Of a DNA stretch of 33,255 nt, positions 8,984 through 33,255 are shown piece by piece (position 1 is the stretch's first letter; each line of letters starts with the position of its first letter). The notes under the pieces were generated by a model. That model had not been told where the DNA came from, ran no database searches, and was given only the letters and a program-made list of their open reading frames with translations. The position numbers were made by a program, and so were the translations under genes. The stretch is taken from assembly GCA_016283195.1 (NCBI GenBank), contig JAEEML010000166.1, forward strand, positions 1 to 33,255, in the 5' to 3' direction. The DNA comes from Deltaproteobacteria bacterium. Its GTDB lineage: Bacteria; JAEEML01.

Positions 8984-10147
8984 TCATTGCTCATCCCCAT
9001 TCTGTAACCTGAAAAATTCCTTCTGCTGCTCGATTTCACGCCGCAATTCCTCTTGCGTAGGCATATAAGTGAGATACTTGGCGGCATAAAGTTGGTCGCT
9101 GCCGTTGAGAACGGAATAATGTGCCACATTATCATCGGTGTCGGCGCAAAGCAATAGCCCAATGGTCGGATTATGCCCTTCGGGGCGCACCAGTTCATCG
9201 TACATCTTCACATACATATCCATCTGCCCAACATCCTGATAATTCAACTTTTTTGTTTTTAAATCGATAAGGACAAAACAGCGCAGATGATAATTGTAGA
9301 AAACAAGGTCGATATAATAGTCTTCCTTTTCGGTGTGAATATGTTTTTGGCGGTCAACGAAAGCAAAGCCTTTGCCTAGTTCCATAAGGAACGGCACAAG
9401 ATGGTCGATAATGCTCTGCTCAAGCCGACTCTCGGTATATTCAGCATTGTTTTTGAAGCCCAAAAATTCGGCAACCACAGGATTTTTCAGATATTCAAGC
9501 TTGTCTTGTAGCGGCTTTGTGAGTTTTTCCATCTCGTCGTGCACCGCCGCTTTGTTTTGCGACTGAAGCATTCGGTGGTAGTATTGCGACGATATGTTGC
9601 GCTGCAGGGTGCGGGTGCTCCACATTTCGTTGGCGGCCTCGTTCTCGTACCAGGCGCGGGCTTCGGCATTTTGCTCTTGCAGGATGATGCTATAGTGCGA
9701 CCAAGACAATCTCAATGGATATGCGGAAGCAATAAATCCATATAAATCCGATTGGTCGGAAAATCCCATCACCGCTGGGACAGTTTCAGATTGTCCCGTC
9801 AGTGATGGGACAATTTCAGATTTTCCACTCACTGCGTGGAAAATGTTCTGGAATGATTTATAAAATGACAAATACCTATAAAGGTTGTTGCGAGAATAGC
9901 CAGCACCATATTTTAAGGTTAAATCTTTTGCCAACCCTCGTATAACCTGCTCGCCATATTCAGCCCGCTTGTCGTTCAGCACTTCTTTCTGTATGCGCAT
10001 ACCTAAAAGCCAGTTGCGTTTGATGAGCGTTTCGTTCACGGCGCGGTAAGCCGCTGACTGTGCCTGTTCAATAATGACGCACGCATCCTGAAACAGGCCC
10101 GACATAGATTCAGGCGCTTTATCTATTTCTGTATGATATTTTTTCAT
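8984..10147 (-). CDS. DUF1016 (YhcG-type) PD-(D/E)XK nuclease family protein
   Basis: 387 residues. The N-terminal DUF1016 helical domain covers about 20-190 (AYRAVNETLIKRNWLLGMRI, then RNNLYRYLSFY, LSWSHYSIIL). The C-terminal nuclease domain covers about 225-380, with DYYIDLVFYN and VLIDLKTKKL supplying the D...DxK catalytic pattern. These proteins occur often in accessory regions near restriction genes; their exact role is not settled. The domain boundary holds a 10-residue in-frame repeat (SGKSEIVPSL, TGQSETVPAV). The frame extends to 10225, but ATG 10147 gives the usual N-terminus; its upstream GGTG is weak. The gene follows a short minus-strand ORF by 8 nt. Confidence 0.85.
   Translation of the reverse strand: MKKYHTEIDKAPESMSGLFQDACVIIEQAQSAAYRAVNETLIKRNWLLGMRIQKEVLNDKRAEYGEQVIRGLAKDLTLKYGAGYSRNNLYRYLSFYKSFQNIFHAVSGKSEIVPSLTGQSETVPAVMGFSDQSDLYGFIASAYPLRLSWSHYSIILQEQNAEARAWYENEAANEMWSTRTLQRNISSQYYHRMLQSQNKAAVHDEMEKLTKPLQDKLEYLKNPVVAEFLGFKNNAEYTESRLEQSIIDHLVPFLMELGKGFAFVDRQKHIHTEKEDYYIDLVFYNYHLRCFVLIDLKTKKLNYQDVGQMDMYVKMYDELVRPEGHNPTIGLLLCADTDDNVAHYSVLNGSDQLYAAKYLTYMPTQEELRREIEQQKEFFRLQNGDEQ
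9766..9836 (-). repeat. In-frame 30-bp repeat inside the yhcG-like gene
   Basis: Two 30-bp units encoding SGKSEIVPSL and TGQSETVPAV, with a partial third (MGFSDQ), lie where other members of the family run straight from SGK into the LSWSHY helix. The DNA alternates GGGACA and TGTCCC, so it can also form hairpins. Length can change by whole codons without breaking the gene. Confidence 0.6.
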
Positions 10148-10155
10148 ATTCACCA

Positions 10156-10305
10156 CTATCTTTTGACCGGTTTTTGTCGCTTTTTTGCCGCCGGAGCCGT
10201 CGGGAGCGGGTTCATTCCAGCGCACGGTATTGATAATGTCTTCTTATCACGAAGAATGTCGGCCATGCCGAAAAGAAGATTGCCTAAGGCCTGTTTGGTA
10301 ATCAT
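10156..10305 (-). CDS. Small ORF resembling a type I methylase N-terminal scrap
   Basis: 49 residues from ATG 10305, with GAGGA 8 nt upstream, ending 8 nt before the yhcG-like start. The segment NLLFGMADILRDK recalls the N-terminal helix of HsdM-like methylases; the C-terminal third is Pro/Lys-rich and matches nothing I know. It may be a broken remnant of a type I restriction gene, or a leader peptide that couples translation into the nuclease gene. No function can be assigned. Confidence 0.35.
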   Translation of the reverse strand: MITKQALGNLLFGMADILRDKKTLSIPCAGMNPLPTAPAAKKRQKPVKR

Positions 10306-12638: not shown

Positions 12639-12749
12639 ATGAAGGTGTTATTGCTCGCGGTGGAAACCAACCAGCCGGAGTTTATGAGTGCCCTTATTGC
12701 GCCGGGGCCGGTCCCTTTGCTCGGATACTTTGGCACTGGGCGACTATGA
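12639..12749 (+). pseudogene. Ankyrin-repeat remnant upstream of the ankyrin gene
   Basis: A 36-codon frame whose start (LLLAVETNQPEFMSALIAPG) follows the ankyrin consensus seen in the next gene (ALMxAAxxGHxEVVxxLLxAGAD). It then degenerates and stops just before that gene's start region. It is probably the leftover end of an earlier ankyrin-repeat gene. The remaining 12447-12638 is AT-rich with no feature I can support. Confidence 0.45.
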
Positions 12750-12760
12750 AGGAAATCTTA

Positions 12761-15715
12761 ATGTTTTCAGTAAATAACAAAAAACGCCATAACGGTGACA
12801 ATAATAGAAATAAGCTGGTAAAATTTTTGCTTCCCAGATTTACCTCTCTCTTTCCGCCTCTCCTTGCCAGCCTCTTTTTTATCCTGCCGGCCAAGGCGGC
12901 CTGTGCTAAAAACTCAAACATTATCGGTATGATCTTTGGTGAGCTCCAGTGGCAGATGTGCCGAGCGGAGATGACCACCGAAAAAGAGACGCCGCTGATG
13001 AAGGCCGCCGAGGAGGGTAATACCAAAAAAGTGCAGGAGCTTATTGCTGCCGGGGCCGAAGTAAACGCTGTCTATGGAGAGCACTATGTCAGAACGACAG
13101 CGCTTTTAGAAGCCGTCAAAGAGGGCCACACGGAAGTGGTGAAGCTCCTCCTGGATGCCGGAGCCAAACCTGATTTAAAAGATGGCGAGTGCAATACAGC
13201 TCTCATGTATGCTGTAAATATGGACAACGCGCAGGAAATGGTTCGCCTGCTTCTTGAGGCTGGGGCAAGTCCCAGAACGAAGAATTTAGAGGGCGAGAAC
13301 GCGCTTGGCATGGTGCTGCAATGTAAGGTGAATGATAATTTACTGCCCTTTCTAAAAGCCAGGGTGTGGCTCTCCTCCAGGCAAAAAAACAAGGCGCTTT
13401 CTATGGCTGTTTGCCAAGATATGGAGACTTTTAAGGCGGCTATTGAAGCTGGAGCCAGGCCGAAGGAAGAGACATTGCTTAAAGCTGCCCAATGCGGCCA
13501 GGCAGATATTGTGCGCTTTCTAATTAGCAAAAAAATAAATATTAATGCCCGCGACAGTATGAAGGAAAAAGCCAAAACGCCGCTGATGTGGGCCGCCGAA
13601 AATGGGCATCTTGAGGTGGTGCAGGCGCTTACCTCCGCCGGAGCCGAAATAGATGCCCGCGCCCTTCCCCAAGAATCCTGGGAACGAGTTTATTATCATG
13701 ATAGCAAAGAAAAATCCAAATTTCTAGCCGGCGAGACAGCGCTCGTATTAGCAATTAGGGCCAGCGCTAGATATGAGTTTTTAAGTCGCAAACTGGCCGT
13801 AATTCAGGCCCTTTTGCAAGCTGGTGCCGATGTAAATATCAACAGCTGGAAATACGAACAATGGGACTTGTCACCACCAAGCTCGAAAGGTTATACCCCG
13901 CTCATAATAGCCGCCGAGACTTGGTGCCCGCCTGAGGTAATCAAGGCACTCATCGCCGCCGGGGCAGATTTAAAAGCCCGCCATGGCAAACAGGTTATGG
14001 ATATACTGCTGTGCAATGAGAATATCAGCGAAGATAACGACGTGGAGTTAGTTCGCGAGCTCATAAAAGCCGGAGCCAATGTAAATACGCGGTGTGATTA
14101 TAATAATTATGATAAGGTGTTTACATATAATTCTCGTCATGGTGGAGAAACGCCGCTCATGGTGGCGGCTAGAGGCGGCAGCGCGGAAATCGTGCAAATG
14201 CTGATTGACGCTGGGGCCGATGTAAATGCTCAAAACGAAAAAAATAATAATCAAACAGCTCTTATCTTAGCTACCCGCGAGGGCCATGCAGAGGTGGTGA
14301 AAGTTCTTCTTGCTGCCGGGGCCGACAAAACAGCTCGGCTGACTAAAGAGGAACATAAGGATATCTTTAAAGCTGATGTTTCTCAGGCTGATCCTGGTTA
14401 TACGCTGCTGATGCTGGCTTTTATGCCCCTGCGCGGGAGTTTATATTATAAGGAGTATACGCCACATCCGCAAGTGATAAAAGCACTGATTGAAGCCGGG
14501 GTGGATGTAAATGCCCAAAACATTAAGGGCGAAACGGCCCTGTATTTAGCTGCAAAGCGTGGTGATACTGAAGCAGTTAAGATGCTGCTCGCCGCCGGGG
14601 CCGAGGTAAACACACAGGATAATTATAATAAAGAGACACCGCTAAATCAAGCTGCTAGAAGAGACCACACCGAGATAGTTAAGGCTCTGATTGCCGCCGG
14701 GGCCGATGTAAATGCCAAGGATGAGGACAACAGTACGGCGCTAATGAGTGCGGCCTATTGTGGCAAAATAGAGATAGTGCAGATGCTGCTCGCCGCCGGG
14801 GCGGATGTAAATGCCCAGAGGTATTATTATAACAGTACGGCGCTAATGGATGCTACCGATTGTAGGCGCACCGAGACAGTTAAGGCTCTGATTGCCGCCG
14901 GAGCCGATGTAAATGCCAAGAATAAAAACAACGATACGGCGCTAATGTTGGCTAGTAATGGAGATTATAGCGGCCTTCGCGGTTTTGCCAATGAATATTA
15001 TAAAGCTTATACTGAGATAGCGTTAGCTCTGATTGCTGCCGGGGCCGATGTAAATATCAAGAATAAGGACGATGAGACGGCGCTAATACGAGCTATTAAT
15101 AACGGTTATACCGAGATAGCACTGGCCCTAATTAAGGCCGGGGCCGACGTAAGTGCCAAGGATGATGATAACGAGACGGCGCTAATGAGGGCTACCTCTC
15201 GGGATAATGCAGAGATAGTGCGGGCTCTGATTGCCGCCGGTGCCGATGTAAATGCCAAGGATAATAAGACACTACTAATGAAGGCTGCCTATCAGAAGAA
15301 TACAGAGATAGTGCGGGTTCTGATTGCCGCCGGTGCCGACGTAAATGCCAAGGGTTATCATAACGGGACGGCGCTAATGAGCGCTGTCGGCAACGCGGAG
15401 ACTCTGCAAATGCTAATTGCCGCCGGTGCCGATGTAAATGCTAAGGATGATGATAACGAGACGGCGCTAATGAGGGCCGTCTACAACGCGGAGATTGTGC
15501 AAATGCTAATTGCCGCCGGTGCCGATGTAAATGCTAAGGATGATGATAACGATACGGCGCTAATGAGGGCAGCTCGTTGGGGGCATACCAAGACAGTGCG
15601 AGTTCTGCTTGCCGCCGGTGCCGACGTAAATGCCAAAAATAATGACAACAAAACGGCTCTTGACATGGCCCAAACAGATGAAATTGCAGCGTTATTAAGA
15701 AGAGCGAAAAAGTAG
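12761..15715 (+). CDS. Large secreted ankyrin-repeat protein
   Basis: 984 residues. Start chosen at ATG 12761, with AAGGA 7 nt upstream, rather than 12746. A signal peptide (hydrophobic LLASLFFILPAKA, cleavage likely after AKA near residue 47) is followed by about 25 ankyrin repeats running almost to the C-terminus. Repeats near the N-terminus are divergent; those from about residue 630 are very alike (consensus TALMxAA-N-AEIVxxLIAAGADVNAKDDDN). Two repeats (GTALMSAVGNAETL, ETALMRAVYNAEIV) are two or three residues short. No enzyme domain is seen, so a protein-binding role in the periplasm or outside the cell is the likely function (inference). The gene stands alone, with no close operon partner. 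Confidence 0.9.
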   Translation: MFSVNNKKRHNGDNNRNKLVKFLLPRFTSLFPPLLASLFFILPAKAACAKNSNIIGMIFGELQWQMCRAEMTTEKETPLMKAAEEGNTKKVQELIAAGAEVNAVYGEHYVRTTALLEAVKEGHTEVVKLLLDAGAKPDLKDGECNTALMYAVNMDNAQEMVRLLLEAGASPRTKNLEGENALGMVLQCKVNDNLLPFLKARVWLSSRQKNKALSMAVCQDMETFKAAIEAGARPKEETLLKAAQCGQADIVRFLISKKININARDSMKEKAKTPLMWAAENGHLEVVQALTSAGAEIDARALPQESWERVYYHDSKEKSKFLAGETALVLAIRASARYEFLSRKLAVIQALLQAGADVNINSWKYEQWDLSPPSSKGYTPLIIAAETWCPPEVIKALIAAGADLKARHGKQVMDILLCNENISEDNDVELVRELIKAGANVNTRCDYNNYDKVFTYNSRHGGETPLMVAARGGSAEIVQMLIDAGADVNAQNEKNNNQTALILATREGHAEVVKVLLAAGADKTARLTKEEHKDIFKADVSQADPGYTLLMLAFMPLRGSLYYKEYTPHPQVIKALIEAGVDVNAQNIKGETALYLAAKRGDTEAVKMLLAAGAEVNTQDNYNKETPLNQAARRDHTEIVKALIAAGADVNAKDEDNSTALMSAAYCGKIEIVQMLLAAGADVNAQRYYYNSTALMDATDCRRTETVKALIAAGADVNAKNKNNDTALMLASNGDYSGLRGFANEYYKAYTEIALALIAAGADVNIKNKDDETALIRAINNGYTEIALALIKAGADVSAKDDDNETALMRATSRDNAEIVRALIAAGADVNAKDNKTLLMKAAYQKNTEIVRVLIAAGADVNAKGYHNGTALMSAVGNAETLQMLIAAGADVNAKDDDNETALMRAVYNAEIVQMLIAAGADVNAKDDDNDTALMRAARWGHTKTVRVLLAAGADVNAKNNDNKTALDMAQTDEIAALLRRAKK
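14650..15640 (+). repeat. Near-identical ankyrin DNA repeats
   Basis: The unit of about 99 bp (some 93 bp) carries blocks such as ATTGCCGCCGGTGCCGATGT and AATGCCAAGGATG many times with few differences, densest at 15210-15640. The high DNA identity, including third codon positions, shows recent expansion by unequal recombination or slippage rather than old divergence. Confidence 0.8.
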
Positions 15716-26408: not shown

Positions 26409-26527
26409 TCGCCTTTTTGGGGGGCTTTAGCCGGCGGCCTCTTGAGACTGCGCCTCCATGGCTTAAGCCTCACAGGACAGCTATTACTTACGCTGATAGC
26501 CCATTATCCTGCCTTGGGAGGTTCTAT

Positions 26528-27127
26528 ATGAACAAGCAATACGGATATATCCGAGTCAGCACCAGGGAGCAAAATGAAGACCGCCAGCTCAGCGCACTTC
26601 TTAGCCTAGGCCTTGCGCCTAAGCAGCTTTTTATAGAAAAACAGTCCGGCAAGGATTTTGAGAGGCCGCAATATAAAAAGCTAATTAAAAAGCTTAGTTA
26701 TGGTGATACATTATATATCAAGAGCATCGATCGCCTAGGTAGAAATTATGCCGAAATTCTGGAGCAATGGCGGCTTTTAACCAAAGGCAAAGGTGTGGAA
26801 ATCTGCGTACTAGATATGCCCCTGCTGGATACGCGCCGCGACAAAGATCTCACTGGCACGCTCATTGCCGATATTGTCCTAGAGCTTCTTTCATACGTCG
26901 CCGAAACCGAACGCAATATGATTCGCCAGCGCCAGGCAGAAGGCATTGCCGCCGCCAAAGCGCGCGGTAAAACCTGGGGACGCCCCAAGCGAAAGCTTCA
27001 GCCAAGCTTTTTTGCGGCCTTAAAAGCTTGGAAAAGCGGAGAGATAACCTGTGCTATGGCGGCAAGTAGCTGTGGCATGACTCTGGCGAATTTTAGGTAT
27101 CACGCGGGGCGACAAGCAGGAAATTAG
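26528..27127 (+). CDS. Small serine recombinase (resolvase/invertase family)
   Basis: 199 residues from ATG 26528, with GGGAGG 7 nt upstream. The catalytic domain covers about 1-140: YGYIRVSTREQNEDRQ holds the nucleophile serine (S10), and IKSIDRLGRN and AETERNMIRQRQAEGI carry the conserved arginines and E-helix. A helix-turn-helix follows at about 150-199, with GRPKRK at its start. It is the length of resolvases and invertases, not of large serine integrases, so inversion or resolution of a nearby segment is expected. A 28-bp dyad directly after its stop and inverted 12-bp sequences at 27149/27250 are candidate sites. It opens the restriction-like island. Confidence 0.92.
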   Translation: MNKQYGYIRVSTREQNEDRQLSALLSLGLAPKQLFIEKQSGKDFERPQYKKLIKKLSYGDTLYIKSIDRLGRNYAEILEQWRLLTKGKGVEICVLDMPLLDTRRDKDLTGTLIADIVLELLSYVAETERNMIRQRQAEGIAAAKARGKTWGRPKRKLQPSFFAALKAWKSGEITCAMAASSCGMTLANFRYHAGRQAGN

Positions 27128-27283: not shown

Positions 27284-27357
27284 TTGGGCGAAAAGATGGC
27301 TGAGAGGCAAGCCAAATTGCGTGAACCTGGTGCACAGCATGGAGAAAAACTCCCATG
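27284..27357 (+). promoter_or_regulatory. THI-box-like leader and start-codon hairpin of the methylase gene
   Basis: The leader carries GGCTGAGAGG (27298-27307) and TGAACCTG (27322-27329), the two most conserved words of the TPP riboswitch, 17 nt apart, with TTGG(G)C and GCCAA placed to pair around the first. The pyrophosphate-side loop (TAATGCCAGCG) is missing. A hairpin at 27338-27357, CATGGAG/CT(C)CCATG, holds both the GGAG ribosome site and the ATG. Either a degenerate or altered riboswitch-like control, or chance. Confidence 0.3.
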
Positions 27358-29301
27358 TTAATAGGCATCCAGGATGAAATACTGCGCCTTGCCCAATTAG
27401 GCTTGCTTAACCTGCTACTCAAAGACCAAACAACCGGTCATAACATCCGCTGGGCAACTGATGCCTATGTCCAAATTGGGCATGCTTATGAACGAAATGC
27501 CGAAATTACAGCTGATGTAATTACTGGCGAGCATTCGGGGGTAATCCGCAATCGCGCCCGCAAAGAACTCGAATTACAATCAGGCCGCACCAAATCTCAT
27601 GCAGAGGTATTTACTCCCATTTGGGTATGTAATCGAATGATTGATGAGCTTTTGGCAGATATTAGTACCACTTGTTCTGAATGTGGCAAAGCAAATCCAT
27701 TTATCTATTCAAGATGCCTGGAAATTACCTGCGGTGAAGCTCCATTTTTAGTGCAACGCTATGATGTATTAACCGGCGAGATTATCCCTATTGAGCAGCG
27801 CAAGGGCATATTAGATCGCAAGTTGCAATGTGCCTATTCACTAAAAAAAGATAATATTATCAATGAAAATTGCGAAATTTTAAAGATTATTATCTGTGCT
27901 TTTCAATCAGTTTACGGCTACGAATTGCAAGGTGACAATCTGCTTATTGCACGGCTGAATCTCTATATGACATTTGAAGAGTATCTCCAATATATCTGCG
28001 AGCGAAAGCCAACCTACGAAGAAAGCCTAAAGATGATCGAAATTATCACCTGGAATCTTTGGCAGATGGATGGGCTTACTGGACATACGCCGTGTGGTGA
28101 AAGCGCAGTATCCTCACAGCTTTCGCTCTTTGATTTCATGGAAATAAGCGATAAGCCACAAGAAACACCCAAGCCATGCAAAGTACGTTTTTATATTAGA
28201 CCCCAAAAGTTTAAAACGCTCACTATTCAGCAAATCGCAGAGCAAGGAGGACAGAGTATGAAATTCAATTATATCATAGGAAACCCGCCGTATCAGGAAG
28301 AAACAGCTGACACATCTGATATGCCTATCTACAATAGTTTTATGGATGCTGCGTACAAGGTTGCTGACAAAGTAGAGTTGATTACTCCGGCGCGTTTTTT
28401 GTTTAATGCAGGAAAAACTCCAGAGAATTGGAACGAAAAGATGCTTAATGATGAGCATTTGAAGGTCCTGAAATATACCCAAAAGAGTTCAGATATTTTT
28501 GCCAATACGGACATTAAAGGTGGCATTGCGATAACTTATAGGGATGCAAATAAGTATTTTGGAGCTATTGGAGCATATTCTCAATTTTCTGAATTAAATA
28601 GCATCAGAAATAAAGTTATCAGTAAACCTGATTTTTCTTCGTTATCTGAATGGGTTTATGCACCTGAAAGTTATAAATTTTCAGAAGCACTTCATGCAGA
28701 GAATCCTGAGATTCGGTTTAAGGGGGAAAATGTGGGAATCCTAAGTAAAGGACATGATTATGATGTTGTCACCAATATTTTTTCCAAATTGCCGAACATT
28801 TTCATTGATGAAAAAACAACAGATAATGAAAATTGGCTTGGCTTTGTAGGTCTTATCGGAAATAAACGTTTTACAAAATATATCAAACGAAAATATATTC
28901 GTCCACATGAAAACCTTGATAAATACAAAGTTATTCTTCCAAAATCGAATGGTTCTGGTGCAATAGGAGAAGTTTTATCAACGCCCGTCATCGGGACGCC
29001 CGTCATCGGGCATACCCAATCTTTTATAAGCATTGGTGCATTAGAGACCGAAAGAGAAGCAGAAAACCTACTGAAATACATAAAAAGCAAATTTGCTCGA
29101 ACAATGCTTGGTATCTTGAAAATAACGCAAGATAATAAAAAGAAAACTTGGAAATATGTTCCTCTCCAAGACTTTACCTCTAAATCCGACATTGACTGGA
29201 CCAAATCCATTCCAGACATAGACCAGCAATTATATAAAAAATATGGGCTGGATAAAAGCGAAATCGACTTCATCGAAAGCCATGTAAAGGCAATGGCATA
29301 A
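27355..29301 (+). CDS. Eco57I-type N6-adenine DNA methyltransferase
   Basis: 648 residues. A helical N-terminal part (1-80) is followed by HAEVFTPIWVCNRMI (82-96), motif I in the altered form LEITCGEAPF (122-131), a Cys pair (CSEC) inserted just before it, GYELQGDN, and the catalytic NPPY at about 310-313 (YIIGNPPYQEE). The C-terminal third (about 430-640) is a target recognition region, including TPVIGTPVIGHTQSF and KFARTMLGILKITQDN. It should methylate adenine in a specific DNA sequence. It is followed after 26 nt by the helicase fusion gene, so the two form a modification/restriction pair. GGAG and the start codon lie in a hairpin. Confidence 0.87.
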   Translation: MLIGIQDEILRLAQLGLLNLLLKDQTTGHNIRWATDAYVQIGHAYERNAEITADVITGEHSGVIRNRARKELELQSGRTKSHAEVFTPIWVCNRMIDELLADISTTCSECGKANPFIYSRCLEITCGEAPFLVQRYDVLTGEIIPIEQRKGILDRKLQCAYSLKKDNIINENCEILKIIICAFQSVYGYELQGDNLLIARLNLYMTFEEYLQYICERKPTYEESLKMIEIITWNLWQMDGLTGHTPCGESAVSSQLSLFDFMEISDKPQETPKPCKVRFYIRPQKFKTLTIQQIAEQGGQSMKFNYIIGNPPYQEETADTSDMPIYNSFMDAAYKVADKVELITPARFLFNAGKTPENWNEKMLNDEHLKVLKYTQKSSDIFANTDIKGGIAITYRDANKYFGAIGAYSQFSELNSIRNKVISKPDFSSLSEWVYAPESYKFSEALHAENPEIRFKGENVGILSKGHDYDVVTNIFSKLPNIFIDEKTTDNENWLGFVGLIGNKRFTKYIKRKYIRPHENLDKYKVILPKSNGSGAIGEVLSTPVIGTPVIGHTQSFISIGALETEREAENLLKYIKSKFARTMLGILKITQDNKKKTWKYVPLQDFTSKSDIDWTKSIPDIDQQLYKKYGLDKSEIDFIESHVKAMA

Positions 29302-29327
29302 GACTATCAAAAGATTGGAGAGCCACA

Positions 29328-32300
29328 ATGGGAACCACCATACAAATAGAAACCATTAAAGAAATCCGCCCTATGATCTATGCCTACAATACCCCCGGAG
29401 TGAGCTACCACGATGGGTGGACCAAAATCGGCTATACTGAGATGCAAACCGTCGAAAACCGCATCGACCAACAAACTAAAACCGCCGATATTCAATGGAC
29501 TCTTGCGTGGAAACACATCGCTTTATACAACGACGAGAGTTTTGAAGCTTTCACAGATAATGATTTCCATAATTATCTGGAAATTTTTAAACATATCGAA
29601 CGTAAAAATGACGAAAATGGCCGCAGAGAATGGTTCCACATTGACGGCGAAACATCAAAAGCCTATTTTGATGAGTTTTCTGCACGTGAATGGCAAAATG
29701 ATATAAAAACCGATTATACACTACGCGATGAGCAAAATCGCGCCGTTGAAATGACCAAAACCTATTTTGAAAATGGCGGCAGCGAATTTTTGTGGAACGC
29801 CAAACCCAGATTTGGCAAATGTTTGGCGGCCTATGATTTAATCCGCCGCATGAAAATGAAAAATGTTCTTATCGTAACAAACAGGCCAAGTGTGGCTAAT
29901 TCATGGCTGGATGATTTCGTTAAATTCATCCATTGGCGCAATGAATACCGTTTTGTGACAGAGAATGACTCACTCAAAAAAAGTGCCAACAATTGTTTTG
30001 TGATGTCGCGCCAACAGTTCGTTGATTATAAATTTGATAATAACCTACCAAATATTGGCATGATTGCCTTTGAGTCGTTGCAAAGTCTAAAAGGCTCTGT
30101 TTATCACGGCGGAAAATATGACAAGCTGGATTGGATTCATGAATTAAAGTTTGATCTACTCATAGTCGATGAATCGCATGAAGGTGTGGACACACGCAAA
30201 ACTGACTGGGCCTTTGAAAATATTACGAAAAAACATACGCTATATTTGTCTGGTACACCATTCAAAGCAATCGCTAATGAGGATTTTGGTGCAGATCAGG
30301 TTTTTAATTGGTCTTATGCCGATGAACAAGCAGCAAAAGAACAATATTACCTGGCCGGTGTCTCTAATCCCTATGAACGACTGCCACGGATGTCGATGTT
30401 TACTTATCAGCTTTCGGCAATGATTCGCGACGAGCTGGAAAAAGGCTGCATGATTACAGAAGATGAAACTGTCGATTATACGTTCGATTTAAATGAATTT
30501 TTCAAAACAAATAGTAAAGGTGAATTTATCCATTTATCGGAAATAAAAAAATTTCTAAATACTTTGACAGTAAATGAAAAATATCCTTTTTCGACGCCAG
30601 AACTGCGCAATGAACTATGCCATACGCTATGGATACTGGATCGCGTAAGTAGTGCCAAAGCGCTGGCTAATCTTTTAAAATCGCACCCTGTTTTTGAAAA
30701 TTATGAGATTATACTCGCTGCTGGTGACGGTATTATCGATGAAAATGAAAAGCGAGAACGCGCTTTTGACAAGGTAACAAATGCTATCAGAAAACACAAT
30801 AAAACCATCACCTTAAGTGTGGGGCAATTAACTGTTGGCGTAACTATTCCTGAGTGGAGTGGCGTATTAATGCTGTGCAATATGACAAGCCCTGCCGCCT
30901 ATATACAGGCGGCATTCAGAGCACAAAATCCTTATACATTTAAACGCTCGGGTACTACAAGGCCACAGTACTTCCGCAAAGAAAATGCTTATATCTTTGA
31001 CTTTGATCCCGCGCGGACACTCATTATTTTCGACGAATTTGCCAATAATCTTTCGCTTTCTACGAGTGAAGGGCGGGGGACAACAATTAACCGCGAGGAA
31101 AATATCCGCCGTCTCTTAAATTTCTTCCCGGTATTAGGCGAAGATAACGACGGCAAAATGATTGAACTAGATGCAGCAAAAGTGCTAACAATTCCAAGAC
31201 GGATTAAAAGTCTGGAAGTTGTCAGACGCGGCTTTATGTCAAACTTTTTGTTCCAGAATATTTCTAATATCTTTGGTGCACCTGGCATTGTAAAAGACAT
31301 TCTCAGCAAGCTATCTCCAGCCATTAGCAATGGCAGCTCAAGAGGATCCAAACACGAGGCACCAAAATCATTAGATCATATCGAAGAAATTCCGGTTAAT
31401 GAACAAGGCGAAGTTGATATTTCCAATGAAATCGTAATTGGAACAGCAAAGGAACTTCTGGGTGAAAAACGCTGGGAAATACTTGCTGATGATGCTCAAA
31501 AAGCTGTAAATGATATAAAAATCGAACTACCAACAGCAGAAGGTAGTATTTCTGAAAACACGGCAAAAACCATCGCTACTACTCAAAAGGCAGTAGAAGA
31601 GCTAAAAAAGAACATTGCGGCTAATATTAAGAAAAATGTTGTTACAACGATCGCAGAAAACTATGGCGCAAAATCTAGCCAAAAAATGAAAATGGATTCG
31701 CAAGTTGAAGCCGCAATTGATTCTAAATTTAATAAGCGAAGGTCGGAATATGAACAAAAACTGCGCATTGCTCAGATTGAACTCGAGCGGAGGAGCGAAG
31801 AAGCGGACTCAAGCGGAAATAGCGCAATTCTTGATGAGGGAATGTCTAATTATTTGGCAGATGTCTATAAAACCACAAGAGAATTGACCGAAGGATTACA
31901 AAAAGATGTTGCTGAGATTGCCCAATCTGTTCCCCAAGAACTCGTCGAGAAGCAAGAGCATCTAAAGGCCGAAGCAGCCAAGAAAACGATAGAAGACGAT
32001 GTGCGCGCGCTGCTGCGCGGATTTTCGCGTTCGATACCAAGCTTTCTCATGGCCTATGGTGATGACGATCTGCGATTAAGCAATTTTGATACATACACCG
32101 AGCCAGAAGTATTTAGCGAGGTCACAGGTATTACTCTTGAGAATTTTATCTTTTTGCGCGATGGCGGTGATCATACCGATGAAACAACCGGTAAAACAGA
32201 GCACTTTAAGGGGCAGTTATTTGATGAAATAGTCTTTAATGATTCCGTTAAAGAATTTATGAATAAGCGACGTACTTTAGCCAATTACTTTGATGAATCC

Positions 32301-32732
32301 CTGGATGAGGATATCTTTGATTATATTCCGCCCCAAAAAACAAACCAGATATTTACACCCAAATGGGTCGTAAAAAAAATGGTCGGTGAGTTAGAAGCGG
32401 AAAACCCAGGTTGTTTTGACAATCCCGAAAACACCTTTGCTGATTTATATATGAAATCAGGACTTTACATTACAGAAATAGTCAAACGCCTCTTTAACAG
32501 TGATGGGCTAAAAGCCACCTACCCTGATGAAAAGAAACGAATCAGTCATATTATCAAGCATCAGGTGTATGGTATGGCACCAACCCGGATTATTTATTTG
32601 ATTGCGACAAATTATATATTAGGATTTGATGAAACACTAAAAAAAGAATCTACACATTTTGTGCAGGCAGATGCTGCTGAAGCTGCCAAATCAGGTAAAT
32701 TGCAACAACTGGTTGATGCCTGCTTTGGGTAA
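29328..32732 (+). CDS. GIY-YIG/SF2 helicase/degenerate methylase fusion, restriction subunit
   Basis: 1134 residues. Residues about 15-70 resemble a GIY-YIG-like T5orf172 domain (MIYAYNTPG, GWTKIGYTE, VENRIDQQ). The helicase spans about 130-570: AKPRFGKC (Walker A, with Cys in place of the usual Thr/Ser), DESH (281-284), SGTPF (308-312), TVGVTIPEW and QAAFRAQNP (motifs V/VI, about 500-535). A charged coiled-coil region covers about 700-880. The C-terminal 130 residues (QIFTPKWVVKKMVGELE, FADLYMKSGLYITEIV) mirror the methylase start, but the motif I glycines are lost and NPPY is absent, so it is probably a non-catalytic methylase-like module. GGAG lies 7 nt before the ATG. Likely the DNA-translocating and cutting partner of the upstream methylase. 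Confidence 0.85.
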   Translation: MGTTIQIETIKEIRPMIYAYNTPGVSYHDGWTKIGYTEMQTVENRIDQQTKTADIQWTLAWKHIALYNDESFEAFTDNDFHNYLEIFKHIERKNDENGRREWFHIDGETSKAYFDEFSAREWQNDIKTDYTLRDEQNRAVEMTKTYFENGGSEFLWNAKPRFGKCLAAYDLIRRMKMKNVLIVTNRPSVANSWLDDFVKFIHWRNEYRFVTENDSLKKSANNCFVMSRQQFVDYKFDNNLPNIGMIAFESLQSLKGSVYHGGKYDKLDWIHELKFDLLIVDESHEGVDTRKTDWAFENITKKHTLYLSGTPFKAIANEDFGADQVFNWSYADEQAAKEQYYLAGVSNPYERLPRMSMFTYQLSAMIRDELEKGCMITEDETVDYTFDLNEFFKTNSKGEFIHLSEIKKFLNTLTVNEKYPFSTPELRNELCHTLWILDRVSSAKALANLLKSHPVFENYEIILAAGDGIIDENEKRERAFDKVTNAIRKHNKTITLSVGQLTVGVTIPEWSGVLMLCNMTSPAAYIQAAFRAQNPYTFKRSGTTRPQYFRKENAYIFDFDPARTLIIFDEFANNLSLSTSEGRGTTINREENIRRLLNFFPVLGEDNDGKMIELDAAKVLTIPRRIKSLEVVRRGFMSNFLFQNISNIFGAPGIVKDILSKLSPAISNGSSRGSKHEAPKSLDHIEEIPVNEQGEVDISNEIVIGTAKELLGEKRWEILADDAQKAVNDIKIELPTAEGSISENTAKTIATTQKAVEELKKNIAANIKKNVVTTIAENYGAKSSQKMKMDSQVEAAIDSKFNKRRSEYEQKLRIAQIELERRSEEADSSGNSAILDEGMSNYLADVYKTTRELTEGLQKDVAEIAQSVPQELVEKQEHLKAEAAKKTIEDDVRALLRGFSRSIPSFLMAYGDDDLRLSNFDTYTEPEVFSEVTGITLENFIFLRDGGDHTDETTGKTEHFKGQLFDEIVFNDSVKEFMNKRRTLANYFDESLDEDIFDYIPPQKTNQIFTPKWVVKKMVGELEAENPGCFDNPENTFADLYMKSGLYITEIVKRLFNSDGLKATYPDEKKRISHIIKHQVYGMAPTRIIYLIATNYILGFDETLKKESTHFVQADAAEAAKSGKLQQLVDACFG

Positions 32733-33024: not shown

Positions 33025-33255
33025 ATGAATAAGGAAATTACCGCTAAGAAGATAGAAGCCAGGATTCTCACCATCAGAAATCAGCAGGTAATGATTGACC
33101 GCGACCTAGCGGAGCTTTACGGAGTGGAGACCAAGCGACTTAATGAACAGGTAAAGCGCAATATTGAACGGTTTCCTGAAAACTTTATGTTTCAATTGAA
33201 TAATGAAGAATTTGCCCATTGGAAGTCGCAATTTGCGACCTCCAATGCCGATAAA
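33025..33255 (+). CDS. ORF6N domain protein, cut by the window edge
   Basis: The first 77 residues of a protein that starts MNKEITAKKIEARILTIRNQ and has the ORF6N signature VMIDRDLAELYGVETKRLNEQVKRN (written here in part: MIDRDLAELYGVETKRLNEQ) and RFPENFMFQL. ORF6N is a DNA-binding domain first seen in phage antirepressor-like proteins and is common in accessory islands of anaerobes. AGG lies 7 nt before the ATG. The C-terminal part, which usually decides the role, is outside the window. Confidence 0.88.
   Translation, partial: MNKEITAKKIEARILTIRNQQVMIDRDLAELYGVETKRLNEQVKRNIERFPENFMFQLNNEEFAHWKSQFATSNADK

What the first reader, a model, noticed from the sequence alone, without database searches (positions are those of the whole stretch)
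27355..32732. Split restriction-like pair: methylase plus GIY-YIG/helicase/dead-methylase fusion
The second protein combines a GIY-YIG-like N-terminus, an SF2 translocase and a methylase-like C-terminus that has lost motif I glycines and NPPY; the first protein supplies the active methylase and recognition region. This looks like a type ISP or type I enzyme divided differently, with a homing-type nuclease domain in place of the usual one. The Walker A Cys (GKC) and the long coiled coil are further oddities.
Basis: partly seen in the sequence, partly recalled or inferred. Interest (0 to 1): 0.58.

Follow-up and report, generated by a model that had tools for sequence, protein, structure and literature searches.

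The report
Restriction system with one swappable methylase half
Two neighbouring bacterial genes look like a DNA-cutting defence system in which one half of the methylation enzyme, the part that reads the DNA site, has a possible partner in each gene and is swapped as a cassette among relatives.

Summary
The pair is real. P1 (27355-29301) and P2 (29328-32732) form a restriction-modification-like operon; relatives are common, mostly in gut Firmicutes, Prevotella, Fibrobacter and Gram-positive plasmids. P2 is a T5orf172-type GIY-YIG nuclease, an SF2 motor, a coiled coil and a half methylase (module C). P1 is an AdoMet-binding half (A) joined to a catalytic/recognition half (B, NPPY plus TRD) and is predicted to fold as a complete gamma-class N6-adenine methylase. 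The 'dead methylase' of P2 is not decay: C is the best-conserved part of P2 (Lys for the first motif-I Gly in 89 of 90 rows) and lacks everything from NPPY onward. In relatives the same four modules (A, B, H, C) are joined differently, including H-C-B in one chain with A separate, where C plus B is also predicted to fold as a full methylase. So one catalytic/recognition half has two possible partners: A, with AdoMet-type motifs, and C, apparently AdoMet-blind and attached to the nuclease-motor. B is also an exchangeable cassette: between near-identical systems identity collapses 8-19 bases past the start of the NPPY codons (14 of 15 pairs, five lineages). Layout resembles type ISP with another nuclease; PADLOC already labels the parts as predicted type II/IIG proteins.

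The parts
27355..29301 (+). P1 (648 aa): A-B fusion, predicted complete gamma-class N6-adenine DNA methyltransferase with recognition domain
   Evidence: Eco57I Pfam E 2e-19; AlphaFold2 pLDDT 84.9, pTM 0.80; CamA 7lt5 Z 19.3 over 418 residues
27355..28209 (+). module A (aa 1-285): AdoMet-binding half, motifs X, I, II; no NPPY
   Evidence: module border set by the relatives in which A is its own gene; matches PADLOC MTase_II PDLC03390
27718..27747 (+). motif I of A, LEITCGEAPF (aa 122-131)
   Evidence: G127 71 of 71, E128 69 of 71 rows
28210..29298 (+). module B (aa 286-648): catalytic NPPY plus target-recognition half; exchangeable cassette in relatives
   Evidence: PADLOC PDLC03375
28282..28293 (+). 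NPPY codons (aa 310-313); the left cassette breakpoint in relatives lies just past the homologous codons
29328..32732 (+). P2 (1134 aa): H-C, GIY-YIG nuclease, SF2 translocase, coiled coil, half methylase
29376..29639 (+). GIY-YIG (T5orf172-type) nuclease domain, aa 17-104
29715..31277 (+). SF2 helicase-like motor, about aa 130-650 (Walker A GKC, DESH, SGTP, QAAFRAQ)
   Evidence: end approximate
31485..31997 (+). predicted helical coiled-coil stretch, about aa 720-890
   Evidence: homologous stretch of L077 is long helices in the model; extent in the window is inferred
32118..32729 (+). module C (aa 931-1134): half methylase, motifs X to III only, Lys in motif I, ends where FDxIIGNPPY follows in H-C-B relatives
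32442..32468 (+). motif I of C, DLYMKSGLY (aa 1039-1047)
   Evidence: K 89 of 90, S 89 of 90, G 90 of 90 rows

Best explanation
An ATP-dependent restriction-modification system. P1 methylates adenine at a specific site: its A half binds AdoMet and its B half supplies NPPY and the recognition domain (fold predicted; activity inferred from family). P2 restricts: its GIY-YIG domain cuts and its SF2 domain moves on DNA (inferred from domains). P2 has no recognition domain of its own, so it must take its address from B. Module C, a paralogue of A that keeps the half-fold but not the usual AdoMet residues, is the part of P2 that engages the methylase side of the complex (inferred: C and B are one continuous domain in H-C-B relatives). 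Whether C takes B away from A or docks beside it is open. New specificities arise by replacing B at the NPPY codons (shown by comparison of relatives; a specificity change itself is inferred).
For: P1 model complete and confident, best matches are DNA N6-adenine methylases. C-B of L077 also models as a complete methylase, CamA 7rfk Z 19.5 over 403 residues. Four-module logic: of 91 loci classified, A-B|H-C 31, A|B|H-C 24, A|H-C|B 6, A|H-C-B 5, the other 25 partial or odd, most at contig ends. 0 of 84 C-bearing ORFs without B has NPPY after C starts; 2 of 37 separate A ORFs have it and both (L035, L067) look like frameshifted A-B fusions. In eight sister-type loci (A | C-B | H) 8 of 8 A have EPACGxGNFL or EPAAGHGNFL and no NPPY, and 8 of 8 C-B have CK(S/T)G or TKSG plus NPPY. 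C has Ala where A has the motif-II acid (Ala 88 of 90; Glu/Asp 71 of 71). C diverges more slowly than H (median distance ratio 0.77 in A-B|H-C loci). Cassette exchange. PADLOC files the parts as type II methyltransferase and type IIG enzyme.
Against: No activity, methylation motif or phage data. The long-type A of this window has GEA, not GxG, in motif I. The C-B model rests on only three fused rows plus unpaired C and B rows. Distance correlations after removing H show no A-B tie (-0.02) and a weak B-C one (0.11). B. subtilis DnmA-YeeB-YeeC, with similar parts, showed no restriction (PMC9973331, passages read). P2 itself and the P1-P2 complex were not modelled.
Confidence: 0.6

Rival explanations
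1. C plus B is the real methylase, with Lys in motif I as a working variant, and A is an accessory or regulatory subunit. In the window B sits on P1 but completes C of P2 in trans.
For: C and B are contiguous in H-C-B proteins and in sister-type C-B proteins; the C-B fold is complete; the Lys is almost invariant, as for a used residue.
Against: C lacks the first motif-I Gly and the motif-II acid while A keeps both types of residue; A is present in all 66 loci in which the other modules are complete and uncut and 8 of 8 sister loci; A-B fusions recur on the tree and model as a complete methylase.
Confidence: 0.2
2. The pair is not a working restriction system: P1 is a functional methylase used for gene regulation and P2 is a relic, as proposed for DnmA-YeeB-YeeC in B. 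subtilis.
For: Precedent in PMC9973331 (passages read); the Walker A Cys is unusual and the same genome holds a decayed second locus.
Against: All other active-site positions of P2 match the family; the reading frames are intact; L001 shares the Cys at 76% identity, so it is not a fresh lesion.
Confidence: 0.15
3. A type ISP-like single enzyme that was broken by gene fission, with C a useless stump.
For: Layout of type ISP (PMC4872093, passages read); fused relatives exist.
Against: The split form is the majority, spread over several phyla with C more conserved than H; labels change 14 times on the tree with C kept each time.
Confidence: 0.05

Closest known systems
Type ISP enzymes LlaGI / LlaBIII
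   Same: nuclease, SF2 motor, helical linker, gamma-class N6-adenine methylase and TRD in that order in the H-C-B relatives; P1 matches LlaGI 5ffj Z 17.0 and the C-B model 5ffj Z 18.1
   Different: ISP has an Mrr nuclease and one polypeptide (PMC4872093, passages read); here GIY-YIG, two proteins, and an additional AdoMet half (A)
DnmA-YeeB-YeeC (B. subtilis) and its V. crassostreae homologue
   Same: methylase + SF2 helicase + T5orf172/GIY-YIG protein in one operon (PMC9973331, passages read)
   Different: three separate proteins, MmeI-like single-chain methylase; no second AdoMet-like half described in the passages read
PADLOC type II/IIG models PDLC03390, PDLC03375, PDLC03626
   Same: match A, B and H-C-B respectively
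   Different: names only (PADLOC models); they do not state that A and B are halves of one enzyme
Target-recognition-domain movement in Helicobacter methylases
   Same: specificity parts exchanged by recombination at DNA encoding conserved methylase motifs (PMC3983042, passages read)
   Different: here the whole half from NPPY on is replaced, and it is often a separate gene

Membership tests
Type ISP | all functions in one polypeptide | tested here: not met
   two genes in the window; one-chain H-C-B in 5 of 91 loci, still with a separate A
Type ISP | N-terminal Mrr-family nuclease | tested here: not met
   T5orf172/GIY-YIG instead
Type ISP | SF2 helicase-like motor | tested here: met
   ResIII in 44 of 44 members
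Type ISP | gamma-class N6-adenine methylase followed by TRD | tested here: met
   P1 model and structure matches
Type ISP | unidirectional translocation and cleavage on collision | not testable with these tools
   needs biochemistry
T5orf172 / GIY-YIG nucleases | sequence profile and conserved residues | tested here: met
   window just above Pfam cut-off, 20 of 44 members at E <= 0.01, conserved residues
T5orf172 / GIY-YIG nucleases | GIY-YIG fold in a structure or model | not tested
Type IIG (PADLOC/REBASE sense) | methylase and nuclease in one chain | tested here: not met
   complete methylase on P1, nuclease on P2; fused only in H-C-B relatives
Type I | separate HsdS with two TRDs | tested here: not met
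   no such gene beside the pair among the ORFs of the window; TRD lies in P1 by structure match
Type III | Mod (beta-class) plus Res with C-terminal PD-(D/E)XK nuclease | tested here: not met
   motif order X-I-NPPY-TRD in P1 and GIY-YIG at the N-terminus of P2; the family definition is recalled
DnmA-YeeB-YeeC | three separate proteins, methylase MmeI-like in one chain | tested here: not met
   helicase and GIY-YIG are one protein here

The most novel reading that the evidence does not exclude
A half-swap switch: one catalytic and site-reading half (B) exchanges partners between an AdoMet-binding half (A), giving the methylase, and an AdoMet-blind paralogue (C) on the nuclease-motor, giving the restriction machine, so that protection and attack read exactly the same site and a single cassette replacement at the NPPY codons re-targets both at once.
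Probability: 0.25. Interest if true: 0.85.

Novelty: new variant of a known kind. Interest (0 to 1): 0.6.

Why it matters
If right, this is a natural methylase divided between its AdoMet half and its catalytic/recognition half, with a second, AdoMet-blind copy of the first half built into the restriction motor. It would explain how modification and restriction stay matched when specificity changes, and gives a modular part (B) that nature swaps whole while A, H and C stay the same (for example L019 and L082: H 99%, C 100%, A 97%, B 34% identical). It also adds a GIY-YIG nuclease to the translocating restriction enzymes, and shows that database labels treat two halves of one enzyme as two methyltransferases.

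Tried and rejected
Alignment A2 was dropped: short C-only rows had been aligned to B; A4 replaced it. Sequence searches of solved structures gave nothing useful for P1, P2 or L091 C-B beyond UvrB for the motor, nor for the GIY-YIG profile (best row an unrelated fimbrial protein, E 0.012). A viral scan with L077 C-B found no relative. The idea of site-specific inversion of B in L030 was not kept: the inverted arms are 79% alike and fall on the conserved MKFDxxIGNPPY coding stretch, and the second B is broken. The idea that C is a decayed stump was rejected. The idea, held midway, that only C plus B is the methylase was weakened by the P1 model. Genomes nearest the window gave no close relative: 6 of 145 genomes searched match, one of them the window's own.

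Limits of the counts: the architecture count used hits covering at least 60% of a module profile in loci L001-L093; L086 (the window itself) was left out before the count and L087 had no hit long enough, leaving 91. Two loci counted as A|B|H-C (L035, L067) look like frameshifted A-B fusions. The tree is a quick one (LG+G4), 38 of 84 inner branches weakly supported, long branches noted by the program. The breakpoint test used 15 pairs of the same architecture out of 29 pairs with H over 0.88, 20 of which have B under 0.60; the 15 pairs fall into five lineages and are not independent.

Literature: all 10 searches gave no paper describing this split or the A/B/C modules; the library lacks most subscription papers, and REBASE was not searched. 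Seen by passages only: PMC5737866, PMC7824862, PMC10853773, PMC9973331, PMC7251935, PMC4872093, PMC12707154, PMC3983042. Class definitions of type I, III and IIG and the canonical motif I (GxG) are recalled.

Full report
What is there. Two ORFs on the + strand, P1 27355-29301 (648 aa) and P2 29328-32732 (1134 aa), 26 bases apart. Pfam gives Eco57I methylase for P1 (E 2e-19) and ResIII (E 1.6e-12) plus T5orf172, a GIY-YIG relative (E 7e-4, 20.4 bits against a cut-off of 20), for P2. PADLOC gives type II methyltransferase for P1 and type IIG enzyme for P2. A tblastn of P2 finds 83 plasmid records, 30 of them covered over at least 80% of the query, 3 phage records, 80 loci kept of 171 in bacterial and archaeal genomes and 5 in viral contigs.

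GIY-YIG. The window match is marginal by itself. In the family it is not: 20 of 44 P2-like proteins hit T5orf172 at E <= 0.01 and 13 hit MUG113, another Pfam family that also matches this stretch of P2; Y18, Y20, G30, K33, G35, R45, D77 and E101 are invariant in 44 rows, and the pattern holds in 23 rows including distant sister proteins, one of which hits T5orf172 at E 2e-9.

Four modules. Profiles built from the two halves of P1 (A, aa 1-285; B, aa 286-648) and of P2 (H, aa 1-930; C, aa 931-1134) were run over all ORFs of 93 loci. Of 91 loci classified: A-B | H-C 31, A | B | H-C 24, A | H-C | B 6, A | H-C-B 5; 12 H-C only, 8 B | H-C, and 5 single odd cases, most of these at contig ends. In the five H-C-B chains C runs directly into KFDVIIGNPPYQ of B. 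None of 84 C-bearing ORFs without B has NPPY after C starts. Of 37 A ORFs separate from B, 2 contain NPPY, both apparent frameshifts of an A-B fusion. A and C are paralogues: short A proteins hit the C profile with 70-104 bits in the loci of this family.

A sister type. Phage NatCom_35866 (L091), four viral contigs (L094-L097) and plasmids of Variovorax, Sphingopyxis and Mycobacteroides (L104-L106) carry three genes A | C-B | H. In 8 of 8, A has an intact motif I (EPACGxGNFL or EPAAGHGNFL) and no NPPY, and C-B has Lys in place of the first glycine (DPACKTGVFL and similar) plus NPPY. Thus the better AdoMet motif and the catalytic motif sit on different chains.

Motif counts in the family. C: Lys 89 of 90 at the first motif-I glycine, Gly 90 of 90 at the second, Ala 88 of 90 where A has the motif-II acid. 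A: Gly 71 of 71, then Glu in 69 of 71; the following residue is Ala in 58 and Gly in 13, so the window's A is itself not fully canonical; Glu or Asp 71 of 71 at motif II. B: GNPP 75 of 75 with the position present. C evolves more slowly than H in split systems (median distance ratio 0.77, 0.80, 0.64) and about equally in H-C-B (0.98). C is therefore under constraint and not decaying.

Structure. AlphaFold2 on P1 with 49 rows: mean pLDDT 84.9, pTM 0.80, strands in the order of a methylase, b1 to b3 from A and b4 onward from B. Foldseek: CamA, BrxX/PglX, LlaBIII, BseCI, MmeI, DrdV; second look: CamA 7lt5 Z 19.3, rmsd 7.5, 418 aligned; MmeI 5hr4 Z 18.1; LlaGI 5ffj Z 17.0. AlphaFold2 on L077 aa 520-1473 with 46 rows: pLDDT 85.1, pTM 0.72; C plus B form the same fold; CamA 7rfk Z 19.5, rmsd 6.5, 403 aligned; LlaGI 5ffj Z 18.1. 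So B is completed by A in one arrangement and by C in another. Caveat: A4 holds only three fused rows.

History. On a quick tree of H the architecture labels need 14 changes (shuffled mean 28.5; as low in 0 of 200), and at least 8 for A-B | H-C against the rest on well-supported branches. Joining and parting of A, B and H-C has happened repeatedly.

Cassette exchange. Among 67 loci with all four modules, 29 pairs have H over 88% identical; 20 of these have B under 60%. L019 and L082: H 0.99, C 1.00, A 0.97, B 0.34. In 15 such pairs of equal architecture the best two-breakpoint fit puts the left break at +8 to +19 bases from the first base of the NPPY codons in 14 and at +37 in one; the right break is 10-14 bases before the stop of B in 7 and 113-149 before it in 8. 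The pairs come from five lineages (Clostridiaceae/Lachnotalea, Faecalibacterium, Lactobacillus, Fibrobacter, Aerococcus). Over all 67 loci the distance of B is nearly unrelated to that of A, C or H (r 0.13, 0.22, 0.20), while A and C keep a partial correlation of 0.35 after H (no significance test). B is a specificity cassette exchanged at the catalytic motif. Exchange of recognition parts at conserved methylase motifs is known in Helicobacter (PMC3983042, passages read).

Mechanism. Most likely P1 and P2 form one ATP-dependent restriction-modification complex. P1 methylates; P2 moves and cuts; C is the face of P2 that engages the methylase side. Shown: module structure, conservation, predicted folds, cassette exchange. 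Inferred: methylation, translocation, cleavage, complex formation, role of C. The bolder reading is that B changes partner between A and C.

Known or new. The layout is closest to type ISP (PMC4872093, passages read) with a different nuclease, and the parts list is closest to DnmA-YeeB-YeeC (PMC9973331, passages read). It fails two defining features of type ISP (one chain, Mrr nuclease). Ten literature searches found no description of the split or of the paired halves; REBASE could not be searched, and PADLOC has models for each part. I rate it a new variant of a known kind.

Noticed in passing
L103 (own genome contig C145), 280-1275, 3793-4773, 6305-6496: Two full A genes (331 and 326 aa) and the repeat that spans the A 3' end a third time at the contig end (97% over 192 bases), each full copy followed by a different gene: RhuM plus a lone T5orf172 GIY-YIG protein, or an AlbA_2/RecG-C-like protein. 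Looks like a decayed or reshuffling second locus.
   Followed up: partly
window 26417-27127 +: Serine recombinase (Resolvase E 1e-30) directly upstream of P1; no link to cassette exchange was tested.
   Followed up: no
window 33025-33255 +: ORF6N-domain protein runs off the contig end just downstream of P2.
   Followed up: no
L030 1949-2947 -, L038 6666-8983 +: Extra B copies: one inverted and broken upstream of A in L030, two tandem broken ones in L038; possible spare cassettes.
   Followed up: partly
L003, L010, L018, L020, L023, between A-B and H-C: Small opposite-strand genes between P1-like and P2-like genes of Prevotellaceae loci, toxin-antitoxin-like by eye.
   Followed up: no
window 29814-29822: Walker A Cys (GKC) in P2, shared only with L001 among 89 rows.
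   Followed up: partly
window 8984-10225 -, 12746-15715 +: YhcG-type PDDEXK nuclease (DUF1016) and a 13-repeat ankyrin protein elsewhere in the window.
   Followed up: no
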